The notes under the pieces are model-generated. The model ran no database searches and was not told the origin of the DNA. It worked only from the letters and a program-made list of their open reading frames with translations. A program made the translations under genes and the position numbers. A stretch of 64,000 nt of DNA from Fibrobacter succinogenes (lineage in GTDB: Bacteria > Fibrobacterota > Fibrobacteria > Fibrobacterales > Fibrobacteraceae), in assembly GCA_902791475.1 (NCBI GenBank), contig CADAWC010000008.1, forward strand, positions 1-64,000. The letters are read 5' to 3'. Position 1 is the stretch's first letter. Each line of letters begins with the position of its first letter. Of this stretch, positions 43,138 to 50,835 are shown piece after piece.

Positions 43138-43324
43138 ACAAGAAAAAATAGAAAATAAATTAAATAGTTTTTTTTTAGGGTTCTTTTTTTGTGTAAAAAC
43201 TTGTTTATTCCCAAATGGCTATCTTTTATAAAAGAAAAACATACGTTGATACCCTTATTGGATGCCGTTGTTCTTTGAAAAAACTATTTTTTTTTAAAGT
43301 ATTTTATTGAACGAGGTCTATGGC

Positions 43325-44317
43325 ATGATCGTCTCTTGGATGACAACTAATAAATGTAACTTGACGTGCAAACACTGCTATCAAGATGCAGGCGAAAACA
43401 AGTCTGCCGAACTCACGACATCAGAAGCGCTCAAGCTTATCGACGAAATTGCAAAGGCCGGATTCAAGATCATGATTTTCAGCGGTGGTGAACCGATGAC
43501 TCGCCCGGATATCGTGGAACTTGTGGCCCATGCCCGCGAACGTGGACTCCGCCCGGTGTTTGGCACGAACGGAACGCTCATTACACATGATTTGGCGTTC
43601 AAGCTCAAGGAAGCGGGTGCCATGGCAATGGGTATCAGCGTCGATAGCATTGATCCCAAGCGTCATAATGATTTCCGTGGCCTTCCGAACGCCTTTGAAC
43701 TCACATTGATGGGCATCGAAAACTGCAAGGCGGCTGGCCTCCCGTTCCAGATTCATACGACTATTATGGACTGGAACCAGAACGAAATTTTTGACATCAT
43801 GGACTGGGTCAAGGAAATCGGTGCCGTGAACCACCAGATTTTCTTCCTCATTCCGGTGGGGCGTGGCAAGGAAATCGAAGGTCATGCGCTGCGCGTTGCC
43901 GAATACGAAGGACTCCTCCGCAAGATTATGGAAAAGAGCCGCACGCTCGGAATCCCGGTGAAGCCCACATGCGCTCCGCAGTTCCTCCGCATCGCAGACC
44001 AGCTCGACATCAAGACGCGTTACAGCCGCGGTTGCCTCGCTGGCCTTGACTACTGCATCGTAAGCCCGATTGGCAAGGTGCGCCCCTGCGCTTACATGAT
44101 GGAAGAAGCGGGCGATGTTCACGATACGCCGTTCGACGAAATTTGGGCAAATGCCGAAATCTTCAAACAGTTACGTACAAAGGCGTACAAGGGCGCTTGC
44201 AGTAAGTGCAAGTTCAACGACCGCTGTGGCGGCTGCCGTGCCCGTGCCGCTTACTACCACGATGGCGACTACATGCAAGAAGACTCCTACTGCGCGTACG
44301 GAAGAGGGTTGAAGTAG
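43325..44317 (+). CDS. ahbD: radical SAM haem synthase AhbD
   Basis: Last step of the sirohaem-dependent pathway: oxidative decarboxylation of two propionates of Fe-coproporphyrin III to the vinyl groups of haem b. 330 aa from ATG 43325 (GAGGT upstream; the TTG start 18 nt earlier is rejected). The radical-SAM motif CNLTCKHCYQDAG is at the very N-terminus after MIVSWMTTN. GGEP and STISVD-like GISVDSID follow. The C-terminal SPASM-type cysteines are in RGCLAGLDYCIVSP, GKVRPCAYM and CSKCKFNDRCGGCRARA, with a final DSYCAYG. ahbC and ahbAB in the same region strengthen the call. Confidence 0.85.
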   Translation: MIVSWMTTNKCNLTCKHCYQDAGENKSAELTTSEALKLIDEIAKAGFKIMIFSGGEPMTRPDIVELVAHARERGLRPVFGTNGTLITHDLAFKLKEAGAMAMGISVDSIDPKRHNDFRGLPNAFELTLMGIENCKAAGLPFQIHTTIMDWNQNEIFDIMDWVKEIGAVNHQIFFLIPVGRGKEIEGHALRVAEYEGLLRKIMEKSRTLGIPVKPTCAPQFLRIADQLDIKTRYSRGCLAGLDYCIVSPIGKVRPCAYMMEEAGDVHDTPFDEIWANAEIFKQLRTKAYKGACSKCKFNDRCGGCRARAAYYHDGDYMQEDSYCAYGRGLK

Positions 44318-44319
44318 GT

Positions 44320-44886
44320 ATGAATAACGTAACCGACAACAACGCAAATCTCTCGTCTCTCGCCAAGGTTGGTGAGCCTGTCGAACCACGTCTCTCGTCT
44401 GACAATTCCGACGACGTTAAATTTATGCGTATGGCGCTTCGTCAGGCCCAGATTGCATTTGACTTTAAGGAAATCCCCATCGGTTGCGTCATCGTAAAAG
44501 ACGGAGTCGTGATAGGGAAGGGCTACAATCAGGTCGAACAGCTCAAGGACGCGACGGCTCATGCCGAAATTATCGCTATTGGCACGGCTGCAAGCACGCT
44601 TGACAACTGGCGCTTGGACGGCTGCACGCTTTATGTGACGCTCGAACCATGCCCTATGTGCGCAGGAGCCATCCTCAACAGCCGTGTTTCCCGCATTGTT
44701 TACGGTTCTCCGGATTCTCGTTTTGGTGGCTGTGGTACGACGATTGATGTCATTACCGGCAATGCACTCAAGCGCACGGTAGAAGTCACGGGTGGCATTC
44801 TCGCAGACGAATGCCTCGGCCTTTTGAAAGGCTTTTTCCAGCAGATGCGCCTCGAAAAAGGTGATTCGGGCAATAAAGGAATTTAG
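44320..44886 (+). CDS. tadA: tRNA adenosine(34) deaminase with a repeat-encoded N-terminus
   Basis: Converts A34 to inosine in tRNA-Arg(ACG). 188 aa from ATG 44320, 2 nt after ahbD. The core starts at FMRMALRQAQIAFDFKEIPIG. Zinc and catalytic motifs are HAEIIAI and PCPMCAGAIL. The first about 30 residues (NLSSLAKVGEPVEPRLSSDN) are not part of the family and are encoded by repeat units at 44349-44402. The stop codon TAG is the first unit of a TAGGTTTTAGG repeat block. Confidence 0.92.
   Translation: MNNVTDNNANLSSLAKVGEPVEPRLSSDNSDDVKFMRMALRQAQIAFDFKEIPIGCVIVKDGVVIGKGYNQVEQLKDATAHAEIIAIGTAASTLDNWRLDGCTLYVTLEPCPMCAGAILNSRVSRIVYGSPDSRFGGCGTTIDVITGNALKRTVEVTGGILADECLGLLKGFFQQMRLEKGDSGNKGI
44349..44402 (+). 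repeat. family C and D repeats translated at the TadA N-terminus
   Basis: TCTCTCGTCTCTCG, then GGTTGGTGAGCCTGTCGAAC, then CACGTCTCTCGTCTGA. The D unit matches the one in HemD (32637-32656) in 18 of 20 positions and is read in the same frame (GEPVE against AEPVE). Confidence 0.78.
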
Positions 44887-45180
44887 GTTTTAGGTTATAG
44901 GTTTTAGGAAAAGATTCACGTGCTTCGCACTTAGTAAAGGGCGGCAAAGCCGCGATTATGATTCTAATCCCTAACTCCTAACCCCTAATCCCTGACCACT
45001 AATCACTTATTTCGCCTTACATTTCTCTCGTCTTTGGATTATCGCTTCGCTTTAATCCCAAATGTTGACCTCGGTCATGCCAAAGCAAGCTTTGTCGCGA
45101 CTCTCGGTCTATGCATTTGTCGTCTCTAATCCCCTTCTAATTACTAGCTACTAGCCACTAACCACTAATCTATTACTATA
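44887..45180 (+). repeat. family E repeat block and repeat-only intergenic region
   Basis: No gene in these about 300 nt. The order is TAGGTTTTAGG units starting at the tadA stop, a CGTGCTTCGCACTTAGTAAA hairpin, GGCGGCAAAGCCGCGATTAT (as at 16881), CTAATCCCTAACTCCTAACC-type units (44964-45006), TCTCGTCTTTGGATTATCGC (family C), a stretch with TTGTCGTCTCTAATCC, and ACTAGCTACTAGCCACTAAC units to 45176. It looks like stacked repeat insertions. Confidence 0.65.
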
Positions 45181-45188
45181 TTCATTAC

Positions 45189-46037
45189 ATGAATTTTACC
45201 AAGTTTAGCGCATTCTCCGCGCTCTCAACACTCTCTATTGCGTTAATGACCCTTTGTTCCTGCGAACGGAACGAAATCCATCTTTCTTTTAACACGAAGA
45301 CCGTTTCTCCGCAGACGTTCGTTCTCGAATCGACGCTGAATGCAAGCATCCCTGGCGATTCCATCAACGAACCCGAATCCATGCGGACCCACGTGAATGT
45401 CCGCAGCACGATGAGCCTTCTCATGTCGTATGACGATGGCTCGGGCCGCTTTGAGATGAAAATCGATTCCGTCGATTACACAAGCGACAAGCGCTCCGTT
45501 GATGAATTCCGCAACATTGAAAAGTATTTATCCATTCAGAATTTCCAGTTCAAGCTTGATCACGATGGCATCATCACTGACCCGACTATTGAAAATGCGG
45601 TCGAAATGCCTTCCGAAGATGATCTGAATCTCATTCCGCTTTTCCTCAAGGCTCAGCCGCTTCTCCCCGAAAAGCCGGTCAAGCTTGGTGAATCTTGGGA
45701 ACGCCAGATGCCGATTTTCGGCAAGGGCAATAGCTCCACGACCGTTTATAAGACATTCACGCTGCAAGACGTTTTCCTCCAGGATGGCGTGCGCATGGCT
45801 AAAATCCACATGGGCGTGAAATACCTCGAACTCCCGGACACGACTTCGAATTTACAGCTGAAGAGTAGCGACTATGTCGTGGGCGATGGCATGGTTCTCT
45901 TTGATGTCACTCATGGAATTATATCATCTGCCGAAATGAATCTTGTGGCAGTTATTGATGTACGCGACCTCGTTGCTGGCGATACGCTTCCGAGCATGAA
46001 CGTCAATCAGAAAATCACCTTGAGGAACGTCCAATGA
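45189..46037 (+). CDS. lipoprotein, first gene of the motor-like operon
   Basis: 282 aa with a signal peptide ending in lipobox TLCSC (cysteine about residue 25). The mature part is beta-rich (VNVRSTMSLLMSYDDG, FEMKIDSVDYTSDKR, KLGESWERQMPIFGKG), similar in style to DUF6263-type periplasmic lipoproteins. Function unknown. Its stop overlaps the next start by 4 nt (ATGA), so it belongs with the five genes downstream. Confidence 0.7.
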   Translation: MNFTKFSAFSALSTLSIALMTLCSCERNEIHLSFNTKTVSPQTFVLESTLNASIPGDSINEPESMRTHVNVRSTMSLLMSYDDGSGRFEMKIDSVDYTSDKRSVDEFRNIEKYLSIQNFQFKLDHDGIITDPTIENAVEMPSEDDLNLIPLFLKAQPLLPEKPVKLGESWERQMPIFGKGNSSTTVYKTFTLQDVFLQDGVRMAKIHMGVKYLELPDTTSNLQLKSSDYVVGDGMVLFDVTHGIISSAEMNLVAVIDVRDLVAGDTLPSMNVNQKITLRNVQ

Positions 46038-46750
46038 AAAATTTAATCTGTTCCTCTCTTGTGGCCGTGGCGACTGTTGCTAGCGTGGCTGTCGCTTCGG
46101 GTATGCCGTTTCCGGTGGCCGAAAACAACAAGGTCTTTTTGCAAGAAAAGGATAGCCCTTACGTGCTCGAACAGAGCGTGGTTGTCGGCGCTACGGATAC
46201 GCTAGTCATTGAACCGGGCGTGACCGTTTTGATGGGCGAATTTGCAAAGCTCATGATCCAGGGCTCGGTAAAAATTGCGGGTACAAACGATAAACCCGTC
46301 GTCTTTAGCGGTGCCGATTCTGTGGCGAACTGGAATGGTTTCCACATCATGTCTAGCGCACAACCGTTTGAAATAAAGAACTTGACCGTCGAGAATGCGT
46401 TCCGCAATACGATTTTCCGTTCTAGCGGTACTCTCGAAAACGTCAATTTCTTCAATAACTATTATGGTCTCTGGGTCGATGAAAGCCCCAATGTGACGCT
46501 TGCCCGTTGCACGTTTGCTCACAACCGTTATGCCTTGTCTGTGAGAGCAGGTCGTGTTGTTTCGAACGGTACAAGCATCTCCGAAAACGTCTATGGACTT
46601 TATCTCGAAACCGAAGGCAAGCTCGATGGCGATACGGACTTGATTCGCAACAACCAGGAATCCGATATCCGCAGCGAAGCCGCTGATTTGAAGACGAGTA
46701 AAAAGCGCGTCCGCCGCAACGTGTGGCACAACATCGAAGCGCGTTTCTAA
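46034..46750 (+). CDS. exported right-handed beta-helix protein
   Basis: 238 aa with signal peptide (LICSSLVAVATVASVAVASG). It has pectate-lyase-like parallel beta-helix coils: TLVIEPGVTVLMGEFAKLMI, SVKIAGTNDKPVVFSG, NGFHIMSSAQPFEIKNLTVE, and NNYYGLWVDESPNVTLARC. It lacks visible catalytic carboxylate clusters of pectinases, so a structural or binding role is as likely. It is coupled to the lipoprotein and lies 9 nt before the next gene. Confidence 0.75.
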   Translation: MKNLICSSLVAVATVASVAVASGMPFPVAENNKVFLQEKDSPYVLEQSVVVGATDTLVIEPGVTVLMGEFAKLMIQGSVKIAGTNDKPVVFSGADSVANWNGFHIMSSAQPFEIKNLTVENAFRNTIFRSSGTLENVNFFNNYYGLWVDESPNVTLARCTFAHNRYALSVRAGRVVSNGTSISENVYGLYLETEGKLDGDTDLIRNNQESDIRSEAADLKTSKKRVRRNVWHNIEARF

Positions 46751-46759
46751 GAGGTAGTC

Positions 46760-47677
46760 GTGGAAGAAGCTTTCCGTAGAGCCATACGTAAGATGACAGG
46801 GGCAAGCGTACGCTTGGCCGTGCGTCCGAATCGCTCGGCTATTGTCGCGACGCTTTCTCAGTCCATGATGGTCACGTGGTCGATTGCGCTCTTTGAACAT
46901 CTCGATGCCATGCTCAACAATCCGGATGCAAACGTCGGCAGTTCCGAGCTCATCTCGTATAGCGAATCCGCCTGGAAACTTTGCGAATCGGGATTCCCGC
47001 AGATTTTCAAGGATTGCGAAAAACTTTATAGCGAGTTCCGCGCCAAGTGGATCCAGCGTTTTTCGACCGATGAAGTCTTGCGACTCTTGCTTGAAGGCGG
47101 TGATTTCTTGGTCCATGACGAAGAAAAGGGCTGGGCTCTTACGGTCAAGAACAACAAGCAGGACATCAACAACTTTTATTCGGCGACGATCCACTTGCTC
47201 GTGAGCGATGCCGAACCGTTGTTTGTGCGTATGCATGGTCGCGTGATGCAGTTGCAAGAAAAACTTTGCAAGTACTGGCTTTCTGAAAGTGCGGTGGACC
47301 CGGTGTCAAAGCTCTTGCCATGCCTCGAAGCTTCGCTTCGTGAAAAAGAAAACGCCATGGTGGTTTCGCTCCGTACGTCCTTGAATTCGCTTGCGAAAAA
47401 GCGTTTTGCGGCGGCGTTCGCCTCTAAAGGTCCTGTCCGTTACTATTCGTCCGCAATGTCCTGCGCTCGCAATGTGGGGCGCTACTGGAACCCGCATTAC
47501 GCATACGAAAACTGCTTCCTTGCGTTTACGGATGATTTTTGTGATTACGCCCAAGGGCTTACGACTCAGGTTATCGAATGGTACCAGAGCAAATGGTCCC
47601 TTTTCCTTCGCGGGTTCTCTCGCGGTCAGTTAAACTTGTTTGAAACAGTCGCTCCTTATCAAGCGCAGAATGTGTAG
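46760..47677 (+). CDS. conserved-looking cytosolic protein of unknown function
   Basis: 305 aa, GTG start with AGAGGT 6 nt upstream. No signal peptide, membrane helix or known motif was recognised. It is helical, with WKLCESGFPQIFKDCEKLYSEF-like amphipathic stretches, several Trp and Cys residues and a C-terminal YYSSAMSCARNVGRYWNPH block. It precedes the MotA-like gene by 7 nt. A regulator or cytosolic partner of the channel is an inference from position only. Confidence 0.6.
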   Translation: MEEAFRRAIRKMTGASVRLAVRPNRSAIVATLSQSMMVTWSIALFEHLDAMLNNPDANVGSSELISYSESAWKLCESGFPQIFKDCEKLYSEFRAKWIQRFSTDEVLRLLLEGGDFLVHDEEKGWALTVKNNKQDINNFYSATIHLLVSDAEPLFVRMHGRVMQLQEKLCKYWLSESAVDPVSKLLPCLEASLREKENAMVVSLRTSLNSLAKKRFAAAFASKGPVRYYSSAMSCARNVGRYWNPHYAYENCFLAFTDDFCDYAQGLTTQVIEWYQSKWSLFLRGFSRGQLNLFETVAPYQAQNV

Positions 47678-47684
47678 GTAAAAA

Positions 47685-49517
47685 ATGAAAAATGCATTCA
47701 ATACGATTCTTATTTTGACGGTGGTGGGTTTTGTAGCCCTTATCGCAGGCGCTCTCTACTTTGGCGCCCCGGCATTTGGCTGGATCATCATGATTGCTAT
47801 CATGGCTGTTTACTTGGTGGAGCAATTTTCTGCCATCCGCAAGATGAAGCAGATTATCGCCGAAGACGAAGTTATCGATTCTTGCGAAAAAGGGAACGCT
47901 TATCCGGAGCCGGGAACGGGCGTTGTCGCGAAGAGAATTGAACTTGCAAAGCGTCTGTTGCAAAAGAACATCCGCCTCGATTCTCCGATTGCCTTTGATG
48001 TACTTTCGTCGGAGTCTTCGATTCCGCTCAACCGCAGCGTGGGTTCGACGGTCATCCTCCTTGGCCTTATGGGTACGTTCTTCGGCCTTATGCAGTCTGT
48101 GGCAACCGCTGGTGGTGCGATTGACAATTCTACGACGCAGGGTACGCTCGATACGATCCAGGTGCTATTTCAGAACATGAAGGGCATTTTCGGTACTAGC
48201 CTTTGTGGTTTGTTTGCCGCCTTGATTTTGAGCGCAAGCCGCACGGTGCTCAGCTCCAAGCGCGATGAATTCATGGCGCACCTCGACACTTTCACGCTCG
48301 ATATGCAAAAAGATGAAAGCGCAGAAGGCGTGATTGAAGAAGACAAGAACGAGCTTGAACGCCTCTTTGAATCTGTCGAAAAGAATTTGTCCGTAATCGC
48401 CTCTTCGGTCAAGGAAGGTTTGGCTGGTGTTGTTTCCATGGTTGGCGAAGAACTCTCCGCTATGACCTCGAAGCTGAATCAGGATGTTTCTTCTTCTATC
48501 AAGACAGTCAATGATTCTCTCGCTGGTGCTGTGGCGAATATGAACGAATCAACGCAGAAGTTTGGCGAGCTTGTTGGCGCTTCTGTGACGAACGCTTTCA
48601 GCCCGATCAATGAAAATATCGGTGCGCTCTCCAAGTCTGTTGAGGCTATCCCGTCGAAGCTTGACGATAAACTCAATGGTATTTCTGCTGCTTTGAACGC
48701 AAGTCTTGATGGTCTTTCTGCCGGTGTCAAGAGCTCGCTCGACGGTGTGGCTTCTGACGTCAAGGCTGGCCTTGATGGCGTTGCATCCGATGTTAAGGCT
48801 GGCCTTCAGGATGTGGCGAAGGGCACGATGGATGTGGCATACCTTACAAAGGATGCAATGGACGAAGCATCTAAGAGCATTGGTGATTCCGTTGCTGAAC
48901 AGGTCAAGCAGTCGGGCGAACAGTGGGCAGACTTTATGCAGCGCCTCGAAGACAAGACGACTGCCAACGTGGATTCCCAGCGCGAAGGTCTCGAAACGCT
49001 CAAGAACGTGGCACTCCAGGTTGCTGAAAAGGCGCAGGCTGGTTCTGCAGAACTTTCTCAGAATGTCTCCGAAAAGCTCGGCGCCCTTTCTTCTGACATT
49101 CTCGGCGCATTCCAGAAGCTTTCCGAAACATCTTCTGTGCTTCTCGAAGCGCAAAAGGCTCTCACCGAAAGCATCGACAATCGCGTGATCAAGGAAAAAG
49201 AAGCTACGGACGCTCTTGGCGGAAACATCGTGGAAACCGCAGAACTTATGCGCGTGAACCAGTCCGAACTCAGCGCCAACCTCGAAATGCTGCGTAGCGG
49301 CCTCGAAACGATTCTCGAAAAGCTCTCCGGCGATACCGCAGAACACGAAGAAGAAGACAACTTTATTGAACATCTCAACCAGTCTCTCGAAGCCTTCCAT
49401 GAACGCGCCAGCGAAGTGCTCATGGAAAATGCAGTCAAGACTCAGGAAATCTTGCTCGAAGTTCTCGAACAGACACAGCGTTCTGCAATCCCCGCTCAAC
49501 CTAAAGCTGAAGGTTAA
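47685..49517 (+). CDS. MotA/TolQ/ZorA-like proton-channel protein with long repeat tail
   Basis: 610 aa. It has membrane helices at about 7-27, 30-47, 121-142 and 168-190. The last two carry the MotA/ExbB-type core STVILLGLMGTFFGLMQSV and GIFGTSLCGLFAALILS. After it comes a roughly 400-residue helical tail with 11-residue periodicity, e.g. DGVASDVKAGL repeated exactly twice (48741-48806). Long-tailed five-subunit motors of this kind are known as ZorA in Zorya systems, paired with a ZorB-like stator. The following gene supplies such a partner 2 nt later. No ZorC, ZorD or ZorE gene is near, so the role is open. Confidence 0.85.
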   Translation: MKNAFNTILILTVVGFVALIAGALYFGAPAFGWIIMIAIMAVYLVEQFSAIRKMKQIIAEDEVIDSCEKGNAYPEPGTGVVAKRIELAKRLLQKNIRLDSPIAFDVLSSESSIPLNRSVGSTVILLGLMGTFFGLMQSVATAGGAIDNSTTQGTLDTIQVLFQNMKGIFGTSLCGLFAALILSASRTVLSSKRDEFMAHLDTFTLDMQKDESAEGVIEEDKNELERLFESVEKNLSVIASSVKEGLAGVVSMVGEELSAMTSKLNQDVSSSIKTVNDSLAGAVANMNESTQKFGELVGASVTNAFSPINENIGALSKSVEAIPSKLDDKLNGISAALNASLDGLSAGVKSSLDGVASDVKAGLDGVASDVKAGLQDVAKGTMDVAYLTKDAMDEASKSIGDSVAEQVKQSGEQWADFMQRLEDKTTANVDSQREGLETLKNVALQVAEKAQAGSAELSQNVSEKLGALSSDILGAFQKLSETSSVLLEAQKALTESIDNRVIKEKEATDALGGNIVETAELMRVNQSELSANLEMLRSGLETILEKLSGDTAEHEEEDNFIEHLNQSLEAFHERASEVLMENAVKTQEILLEVLEQTQRSAIPAQPKAEG

Positions 49518-49519
49518 TC

Positions 49520-50170
49520 ATGCGTCGCAATAGAGACGAAAATAGCAATCCATGGATGGCGTACACGGACTTGGGCGTGGCCCTCGTTTCGCTCTTTATC
49601 CTTGCGTTTGTGGCGATGGCGACCCTCAAGGAACAAAAAGCGGAAGACTTGACGCGTACCGAAGAAGAAGTGCTTAGCTGCCAGGAACAGATGCGTAAGA
49701 TTGCGGCAGAACGCAATGCGCTTTTGTCCAAGAGCTTGCAGACTTCCATTGAAGCTGGCCTTATCGCGCTCGAAGATGGCAAAATCCAGATTCAGGCGAG
49801 CTTCCTTTTCCCGATTAACGGCGCAAACCTTACCAAGGAAGGCGAGGGCGTGATTCGCGGAATCAGCAAGGGTCTTTTGGAAGCTCTTGATTCTACGGAC
49901 GTGATCATGGTGAGTGGCTTTACGGACGACATTCCGTTTAGCGGCTCGACATCCTATACGAACTGGAACCTTTCTACGGAACGTGCCGTGAACGTGGTCA
50001 AGATGCTCGTGAAAATGGGCTTCCCGCCCGATAGGCTCTTTGCCGCAGGCTTTGGCGAACACCGCCCGAAGTACCCGAACGATAGCGAAGAACATCGCCG
50101 TTTGAACCGTCGCGTGGAAATCGGTGTGACTCCGCTCCAGTCCAACAAAACAGCTGAGGTGACGCCCTAA
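49520..50170 (+). CDS. MotB/ZorB-like OmpA-domain stator protein
   Basis: 216 aa. A single N-terminal membrane helix (about 13-35, MAYTDLGVALVSLFILAF) carries the proton-binding Asp near residue 17. A short coiled coil follows, then an OmpA-type peptidoglycan-binding domain (about 95-205) with VSGFTDDIPF, NWNLSTERAVNVVKML, FGEHRPKYPN and LNRRVEIGV. Together with the preceding channel it should form an ion-driven rotary unit anchored in the cell wall. Its stop overlaps the next start (TAATG). Confidence 0.88.
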   Translation: MRRNRDENSNPWMAYTDLGVALVSLFILAFVAMATLKEQKAEDLTRTEEEVLSCQEQMRKIAAERNALLSKSLQTSIEAGLIALEDGKIQIQASFLFPINGANLTKEGEGVIRGISKGLLEALDSTDVIMVSGFTDDIPFSGSTSYTNWNLSTERAVNVVKMLVKMGFPPDRLFAAGFGEHRPKYPNDSEEHRRLNRRVEIGVTPLQSNKTAEVTP

Positions 50171-50835
50171 TGGAAGAGCTCACCGAAAAACTGTCCGAAA
50201 TCAAGGCTAGCATAGATGCCATTCGCAAGACTGGCAAACTTTCGCATTGGCGGATGGTTTATGCGGATACGCTTTACACGCGTGCCCAGGAATATGTGGC
50301 GGTGGACCGTTATCCCGAGGCAAAACTAGTCGCGCAAAAGCTGGACCGCTGGATTCAAGCCCACAAGCCCGCTCTCGAGACAAACACGGGGGATGTGCGC
50401 CCGCCGATGATCTTCTGGAATGCGGACTTGCTGAACAACATTGTGAAGCGCATCCGTTCAACGCTCGATGCAAAGAAAATGCTTGTGCCGGCAACCGAAC
50501 GCGATTCCATCAATCGCCGTTTGAACGTAGTCGAAGAATGGATCCAGAAAGGTGAATTCCTTGTCGCGCACGATGAGCTTTTGGCCCTCCGCAGTGCCTT
50601 GATTGCTCGCCTCCGCCGCAGTTACCGCGCCCGCATTGTCGCTTCGTCTGCGTACAGTGGTGGATACGTCCAGCCGGCCGGTTCGACCGTGGGCCTTTAC
50701 AACTCGCTCCATACGCTCGAGGAAACGTTCCACATCGTTGGCGAACACGATCCGATTTGGATCGAAGACTTCCTCGAAATTTACAACGATTTGTTTAGAA
50801 TTGTAGACAGACTAGTTCCGCAAGACAAAAAATAA
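50170..50835 (+). CDS. unknown helical protein at the end of the motor-like operon
   Basis: 221 aa, start overlapping the OmpA protein stop as TAATG. It is cytosolic, all-helical, with TPR-like alternation (WRMVYADTLYTRAQEYVAVD, AKLVAQKLDRWIQAHKP) and a basic central patch (LIARLRRSYRARIV). No family was recognised. Tight coupling suggests it binds the stator or the tail of the channel protein. Confidence 0.6.
   Translation: MEELTEKLSEIKASIDAIRKTGKLSHWRMVYADTLYTRAQEYVAVDRYPEAKLVAQKLDRWIQAHKPALETNTGDVRPPMIFWNADLLNNIVKRIRSTLDAKKMLVPATERDSINRRLNVVEEWIQKGEFLVAHDELLALRSALIARLRRSYRARIVASSAYSGGYVQPAGSTVGLYNSLHTLEETFHIVGEHDPIWIEDFLEIYNDLFRIVDRLVPQDKK

What the first reader, a model, noticed from the sequence alone, without database searches (positions are those of the whole stretch)
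45189..50835. Long-tailed MotA/MotB-like motor operon without flagellar or Zorya partners
A ZorA-like channel with a 400-residue tail of 11-residue repeats and a ZorB-like OmpA stator are tightly coupled to a lipoprotein, a beta-helix protein and two unknown helical proteins. ZorC, ZorD and ZorE are absent. The lipoprotein and beta-helix protein point outward, so this may be an envelope-spanning force-generating machine (adhesion to fibre, motility or transport) rather than phage defence.
Basis: partly seen in the sequence, partly recalled or inferred. Interest (0 to 1): 0.75.

Follow-up and report, generated by a model that had tools for sequence, protein, structure and literature searches.

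The report
Clade-wide Zorya-III-like motor operon, sometimes motorless
Almost every sequenced member of one class of bacteria that includes fibre-digesting gut species carries a fixed gene cluster that looks like a distant, permanently resident relative of a mobile anti-virus motor system (type III Zorya), and some lineages lack the motor but keep its tail and partner proteins.

Summary
Six tightly packed genes encode a lipoprotein, a beta-helix protein, unknown gp3, a ZorA-like channel with a long 11-residue-repeat tail, a ZorB-like OmpA stator and unknown gp6. The order is conserved across the Fibrobacteraceae, usually with tadA just upstream. gp3 occurs in all 68 near-complete genomes of the class and in none of 42 other Fibrobacterota genomes.

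The order gp3-ZorA-ZorB-gp6 is that of type III Zorya (DUF3348-ZorA-ZorB-DUF2894). ZorA and ZorB are closest to type III. gp6 and gp3 show weak but specific profile similarity to DUF2894 and DUF3348, above every shuffled, cross-pair and real-family control, although no standard HMM recognises them. So it is probably a divergent, vertically inherited type III Zorya relative, not a motor without Zorya partners.

Two features are unexpected. It sits at one fixed site in Fibrobacter (99% of genome pairs share flanking genes), unlike type III loci in Variovorax (10%). Several Fibrobacteria lineages lack the channel and ZorB, yet keep gp3, a membrane-anchored tail with the same tip, and gp6.

Function is unproven. 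I favour a resident envelope role (gp3/gp6 held at the tail tip, motor optional) over mobile phage defence. Motility has no support.

The parts
45189..46037 (+). gene 1: lipoprotein, 282 aa, lipobox-like LCSC; conserved in Fibrobacteraceae with the motor and in one motorless genus group (f4 g14)
   Evidence: (DUF6263 just below cut-off)
46034..46750 (+). gene 2: exported right-handed beta-helix protein, 238 aa; found only in motor-bearing Fibrobacteraceae
   Evidence: (PF13229 6.6e-8)
46760..47677 (+). gene 3 (gp3): 305 aa, predicted cytoplasmic, mostly helical; probable remote homologue of DUF3348 (ZorF of type III Zorya); in all near-complete genomes of the class
47685..49517 (+). gene 4: ZorA-like ion channel subunit, 610 aa, four TM segments and long cytoplasmic tail
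   Evidence: (channel domain vs type III ZorA, hhalign prob 95.7, P 9e-9)
48036..48254 (+). TM3-TM4 channel core of the ZorA-like protein (GLMGTFFGLM ... GIFGTSLCGLFAALIL); absent in motorless lineages
48297..49484 (+). cytoplasmic tail with 11-residue (hendecad) periodicity
49233..49484 (+). tail tip (about residues 517-600), conserved across the class even where the channel is absent
49520..50170 (+). gene 5: ZorB-like stator, 216 aa, one TM helix with invariant Asp17 and OmpA-type peptidoglycan-binding domain
   Evidence: (vs type III ZorB, prob 99.9)
50170..50835 (+). gene 6 (gp6): 221 aa, predicted cytoplasmic, helical; probable remote homologue of DUF2894 (ZorG of type III Zorya)
44320..44886 (+). 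tadA-like deaminase directly upstream in most Fibrobacteraceae: marks the fixed chromosomal site, not proposed as part of the machine

Best explanation
The operon encodes a divergent, vertically inherited relative of type III Zorya. ZorA-like (five copies) and ZorB-like (two copies) form an ion-driven motor in the inner membrane. ZorB grips peptidoglycan. Ion flow turns or strains ZorA and its long tail, and the conserved tail tip holds gp3 and gp6 (the ZorF/ZorG equivalents) in the cytoplasm. The lipoprotein and beta-helix protein add an outward-facing part not seen in type III Zorya. Because it is a fixed part of the class genome, and because gp3, tail and gp6 persist where the motor is absent, its main job is most likely a resident envelope function in which the motor modulates a membrane-tethered gp3/tail/gp6 assembly. 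Shown: gene content, order, conservation, motor and peptidoglycan-binding residues, tail periodicity, motorless forms. Inferred: 5:2 assembly, motion, tip binding, and the resident rather than immune role.
For: ZorA channel and ZorB match type III best. Same four-gene order and packing in ten betaproteobacterial plasmid loci and 72 genome loci. gp6 vs DUF2894: hhalign 32.9 over 170 colinear columns, 0 of 300 column shuffles reach it (max 25.7); gp3 vs DUF3348: 29.0, 0 of 300 (max 22.9); cross pairs not significant. 44 comparisons with unrelated real families peak at 23.6. gp6 invariants G175, N178, D194, P195, W197, F201 fall at the same spacing as DUF2894 G168, N171, S187, P188, Y190, F194. 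Asp17 and the peptidoglycan-binding residues are invariant and shared with type III. gp3 in 68 of 68 near-complete class genomes and none outside the class. gp3 tree follows taxonomy. Fixed site in Fibrobacter (99% of pairs share flanks) against 10% for Variovorax type III. Motorless forms keep gp3, TM-tail with the same tip, and gp6.
Against: Pfam DUF2894 and DUF3348 models find no gp6 or gp3 in 168 genomes; homology rests on weak profile-profile scores plus synteny. The gp3-DUF3348 match covers only about 42 columns. The tail tips of the two groups are not significantly similar. A type III system did protect E. coli from phage (PMC8565338), so an immune role cannot be dismissed. No expression, interaction or phenotype data for this operon were available.
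Confidence: 0.6

Rival explanations
1. A genuine anti-phage system that became a fixed, core innate defence of the class: motor senses envelope damage by phage, gp3/gp6 act as effectors or regulators.
For: Closest relatives are classed as defence, and a Stenotrophomonas type III system reduced phage plaquing in E. coli BL21-AI (PMC8565338). ZorB residues needed for Zorya activity (TM Asp, peptidoglycan-binding residues; PMC11890865) are kept here.
Against: Universal, single-site, vertically inherited, unlike typical defence loci and unlike type III in Variovorax. No nuclease or other recognisable effector, no defence-gene neighbours apart from a radical-SAM protein with only generic similarity to viperins. 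Lineages without the motor keep the rest.
Confidence: 0.25
2. An envelope-spanning machine for adhesion to fibre, gliding or surface transport.
For: Lipoprotein and exported beta-helix protein co-transcribed with a peptidoglycan-anchored motor.
Against: Relatives that lack the motor keep the cytoplasmic parts, and the beta-helix gene is confined to part of one family. No motility has been demonstrated in F. succinogenes (PMC3079729). No adhesion domain found. The long part of the motor points into the cytoplasm.
Confidence: 0.1
3. gp3 and gp6 are unrelated to DUF3348/DUF2894; a Fibrobacteria-specific membrane tail complex recruited a ZorAB-type motor once in the Fibrobacterales, and the shared gene order with type III Zorya is coincidence.
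For: No HMM recognises gp3 or gp6. Motorless forms dominate the other orders of the class.
Against: Independent support from order, ZorA3/ZorB3 affinity and two specific profile matches in the expected positions. f4 forms keep a two-TM hairpin before the tail, as expected of a ZorA that lost TM3-TM4.
Confidence: 0.15

Closest known systems
Zorya type III (ZorF DUF3348, ZorA3 DUF802, ZorB3, ZorG DUF2894; Payne et al. 2021, PMC8565338)
   Same: Four-gene order and packing; best matches of ZorA and ZorB; hendecad tail; TM Asp and peptidoglycan-binding residues; gp6 and gp3 specifically similar to DUF2894 and DUF3348.
   Different: gp3 and gp6 too diverged for any HMM; two extra envelope genes; different tail-tip sequence; fixed core locus rather than varied sites; motorless derivatives exist.
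Zorya types I and II (ZorAB plus ZorC/ZorD or ZorE; PMC11890865)
   Same: ZorAB motor with long ZorA tail and peptidoglycan-binding ZorB.
   Different: No ZorC, ZorD or ZorE found; weaker match than type III.
MotAB/PomAB flagellar stators, TolQR-Pal, ExbBD, GldLM
   Same: 5:2 ion-motor superfamily; ZorB periplasmic domain resembles MotB/PomB (PDB hits to 6e-18).
   Different: No flagellar, Tol, Ton or T9SS partners in the operon; long cytoplasmic hendecad tail.

Membership tests
Zorya type III | ZorA: MotA-type channel of the ZorA3 kind with long cytoplasmic tail | tested here: met
   PADLOC ZorA3 1.7e-11; hhalign channel domain prob 95.7, P 9e-9; hendecad tail in both
Zorya type III | ZorB: TM helix with ion-binding Asp and OmpA-type peptidoglycan-binding domain, ZorB3 kind | tested here: met
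   PADLOC ZorB3 6e-42; hhalign prob 99.9; shared invariant residues
Zorya type III | DUF3348 protein (ZorF) upstream of ZorA | tested here: inconclusive
   gp3 in that position; Pfam PF11828 finds nothing; profile-profile 29.0, 0/300 shuffles, above 44 real-family controls, but only about 42 columns
Zorya type III | DUF2894 protein (ZorG) downstream of ZorB | tested here: inconclusive
   gp6 in that position; Pfam PF11445 finds nothing; profile-profile 32.9 over 170 columns, 0/300 shuffles; one of 58 members weakly hits the PADLOC DUF2894 model, E 0.019
Zorya type III | Protects against phage | not testable with these tools
   shown only for the Stenotrophomonas system expressed in E. coli (PMC8565338)
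Zorya types I/II | ZorC and ZorD, or ZorE, in the locus | tested here: not met
   no match in the six genes or ten flanking genes
Mobile defence island | Patchy presence and varied genomic sites | tested here: not met
   68/68 near-complete class genomes; same site in 99% of Fibrobacter pairs
Flagellar stator (MotAB) | Flagellar partners in the operon | tested here: not met
   none among the operon or its flanks; whole-genome search for flagellar genes not done

The most novel reading that the evidence does not exclude
Type III Zorya descends from, or shares an ancestor with, an old housekeeping envelope complex: a membrane-tethered tail carrying ZorF/ZorG-like proteins to which the ion motor is an optional module. 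Mobile phage defence in Pseudomonadota would then be one derived use, and Fibrobacteria keep both the motorised and motorless forms.
Probability: 0.3. Interest if true: 0.8.

Novelty: new variant of a known kind. Interest (0 to 1): 0.6.

Why it matters
Zorya is treated as a mobile anti-phage motor, and what ZorF and ZorG do is unknown. A fixed, class-wide relative with natural motorless versions gives a way to ask what the tail and its two partner proteins do without the motor, and whether type III Zorya began as a housekeeping envelope complex. It also means that annotation by ZorA/ZorB similarity alone can label a core operon as a defence system, or miss it as one.

Tried and rejected
Pfam, NCBIfam and PADLOC scans of gp3 and gp6, alone and as alignments of 45 and 58 members: no usable match; stray PADLOC hits (JetB, MTase_II, Cas12, BrxA) judged noise because they are inconsistent between members. 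Pfam DUF2894 and DUF3348 models against 168 Fibrobacterota genomes: nothing at the operon. AlphaFold models of gp3 (pLDDT 87.5, pTM 0.83) and gp6 (82.4, pTM 0.50) gave no significant PDB fold match. Tail-tip comparison with type III ZorA: not significant. GldL search in the genome: no match, but the control genomes also gave none, so it says nothing. One type III ZorF (L144) had an over-extended start and was trimmed before the final comparison. A search centred on a proteobacterial genome was not possible with the tool. The proteome entry FSU_0286 (MotA/ExbB domain, F. succinogenes S85, PMC6851124) may be this ZorA, but the identity could not be verified.

Full report
What is there. Window 45189-50835 holds six + strand genes with almost no spacing: a lipoprotein, a beta-helix protein, gp3, a ZorA-like channel protein with a long tail, a ZorB-like OmpA protein and gp6. 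The ZorB-like protein matches PADLOC ZorB3 at 6e-42 against 3e-22 for ZorB1; the ZorA-like protein matches ZorA3 best at 1.7e-11. No ZorC, ZorD or ZorE lies in the operon or among ten neighbours.

How it is distributed. In 168 Fibrobacterota genomes gp3 is found in 120 of the 126 members of the class and in none of the 42 others; the six class members without it are all under 90% complete, so it is in 68 of 68 near-complete ones. ZorB and gp6 follow the same family. In the motor-bearing Fibrobacteraceae loci examined the order lipoprotein, beta-helix, gp3, ZorA, ZorB, gp6 holds on one strand, with tadA directly upstream in most; in one genus (L122) the beta-helix gene was not detected, and some contigs end inside the operon. 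A gp3 tree groups the sequences by family and genus.

The motor is not always there. The channel domain is found in 93 of 126 class genomes. It is absent from genera g2 and g4 and families f3, f4 and f5, where ZorB is also absent from the locus. These lineages still carry gp3, a membrane-anchored tail protein and gp6 in order. Their tail protein keeps the same tip; f4 members keep two membrane segments before the tail but lack TM3-TM4, and g4 members have one segment and a proline-rich linker. Because family f2, outside f1, has the motor, loss in g2/g4 is the simplest reading, with moderate tree support. For f3-f5, loss or original absence cannot be told apart here.

Link to type III Zorya. 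Type III Zorya, described by PADLOC, pairs ZorA and ZorB with a DUF3348 and a DUF2894 protein, and one such system protected E. coli from phage (PMC8565338). Betaproteobacterial loci annotated this way have the order DUF3348-DUF802(ZorA)-OmpA(ZorB)-DUF2894, the same as gp3-ZorA-ZorB-gp6. A scan found 429 further stretches encoding DUF2894 relatives; 72 of the 80 loci kept hold all four genes. Profile comparison gives ZorB prob 99.9 and the ZorA channel domain prob 95.7. gp6 against DUF2894 scores 32.9 over 170 colinear columns and gp3 against DUF3348 scores 29.0 over 42 columns; none of 300 column shuffles reaches either, and the crossed pairs are not significant. Comparisons with 22 unrelated real families peak at 23.6. 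Invariant residues of gp6 and DUF2894 fall at the same spacing. Against this, Pfam models of both families miss gp3 and gp6 in all genomes. I conclude that common descent is likely but not proven.

Inheritance compared. With the same method, 99% of pairs among 20 Fibrobacter loci share a flanking gene, against 10% of pairs among 21 Variovorax type III loci and 23% among eight Paraburkholderia loci. ZorB is somewhat more diverged in the Variovorax set (median 81% against 92% identity), which explains part of the contrast at most.

How it most likely works. By analogy with solved ZorAB complexes (PMC11890865), five ZorA and two ZorB form an ion-driven motor whose tail bundles into a rod. The residues needed, TM Asp and peptidoglycan-binding positions, are invariant here. 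That gp3 and gp6 sit at the tail tip is inferred from three facts: they are kept when the motor is absent, the tip is the conserved part of the tail, and all three genes are always adjacent. The AlphaFold models show helical proteins with no close PDB relative. What the assembly does is not known; a resident envelope role is favoured by fixed inheritance and by motorless forms, and phage defence remains the main rival.

Verdict.

Noticed in passing
window 43307-44317 (+): Radical-SAM protein with a SPASM-like C-terminus; PADLOC viperin models match at 2e-23, probably generic radical-SAM similarity rather than a viperin.
   Followed up: partly
window 44885-45180: Non-coding stretch between tadA and the operon with short CTAATCCCTA/CTAACC-like repeats; a 32-base piece of it occurs only once in the genome.
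   Followed up: partly
G112:C1:40602-40667 and G129:C6:46036-46104: Short stretches matching only the last 22-23 residues of gp6 at 83-91% identity, away from the operon; possible duplicated gene end.
   Followed up: no
L102, L103, L118 and other g2/g4 loci: A small exported protein of about 180-190 aa, unrelated to the lipoprotein by search, sits directly upstream of gp3 in several motorless loci.
   Followed up: no
L149-L228: Type III Zorya loci within one genus (Variovorax) sit at many different chromosomal sites.
   Followed up: partly
PADLOC-DB model PDLC00654: PADLOC-DB labels the DUF2894 model ZorF, whereas the PADLOC paper calls DUF3348 ZorF and DUF2894 ZorG.
   Followed up: no
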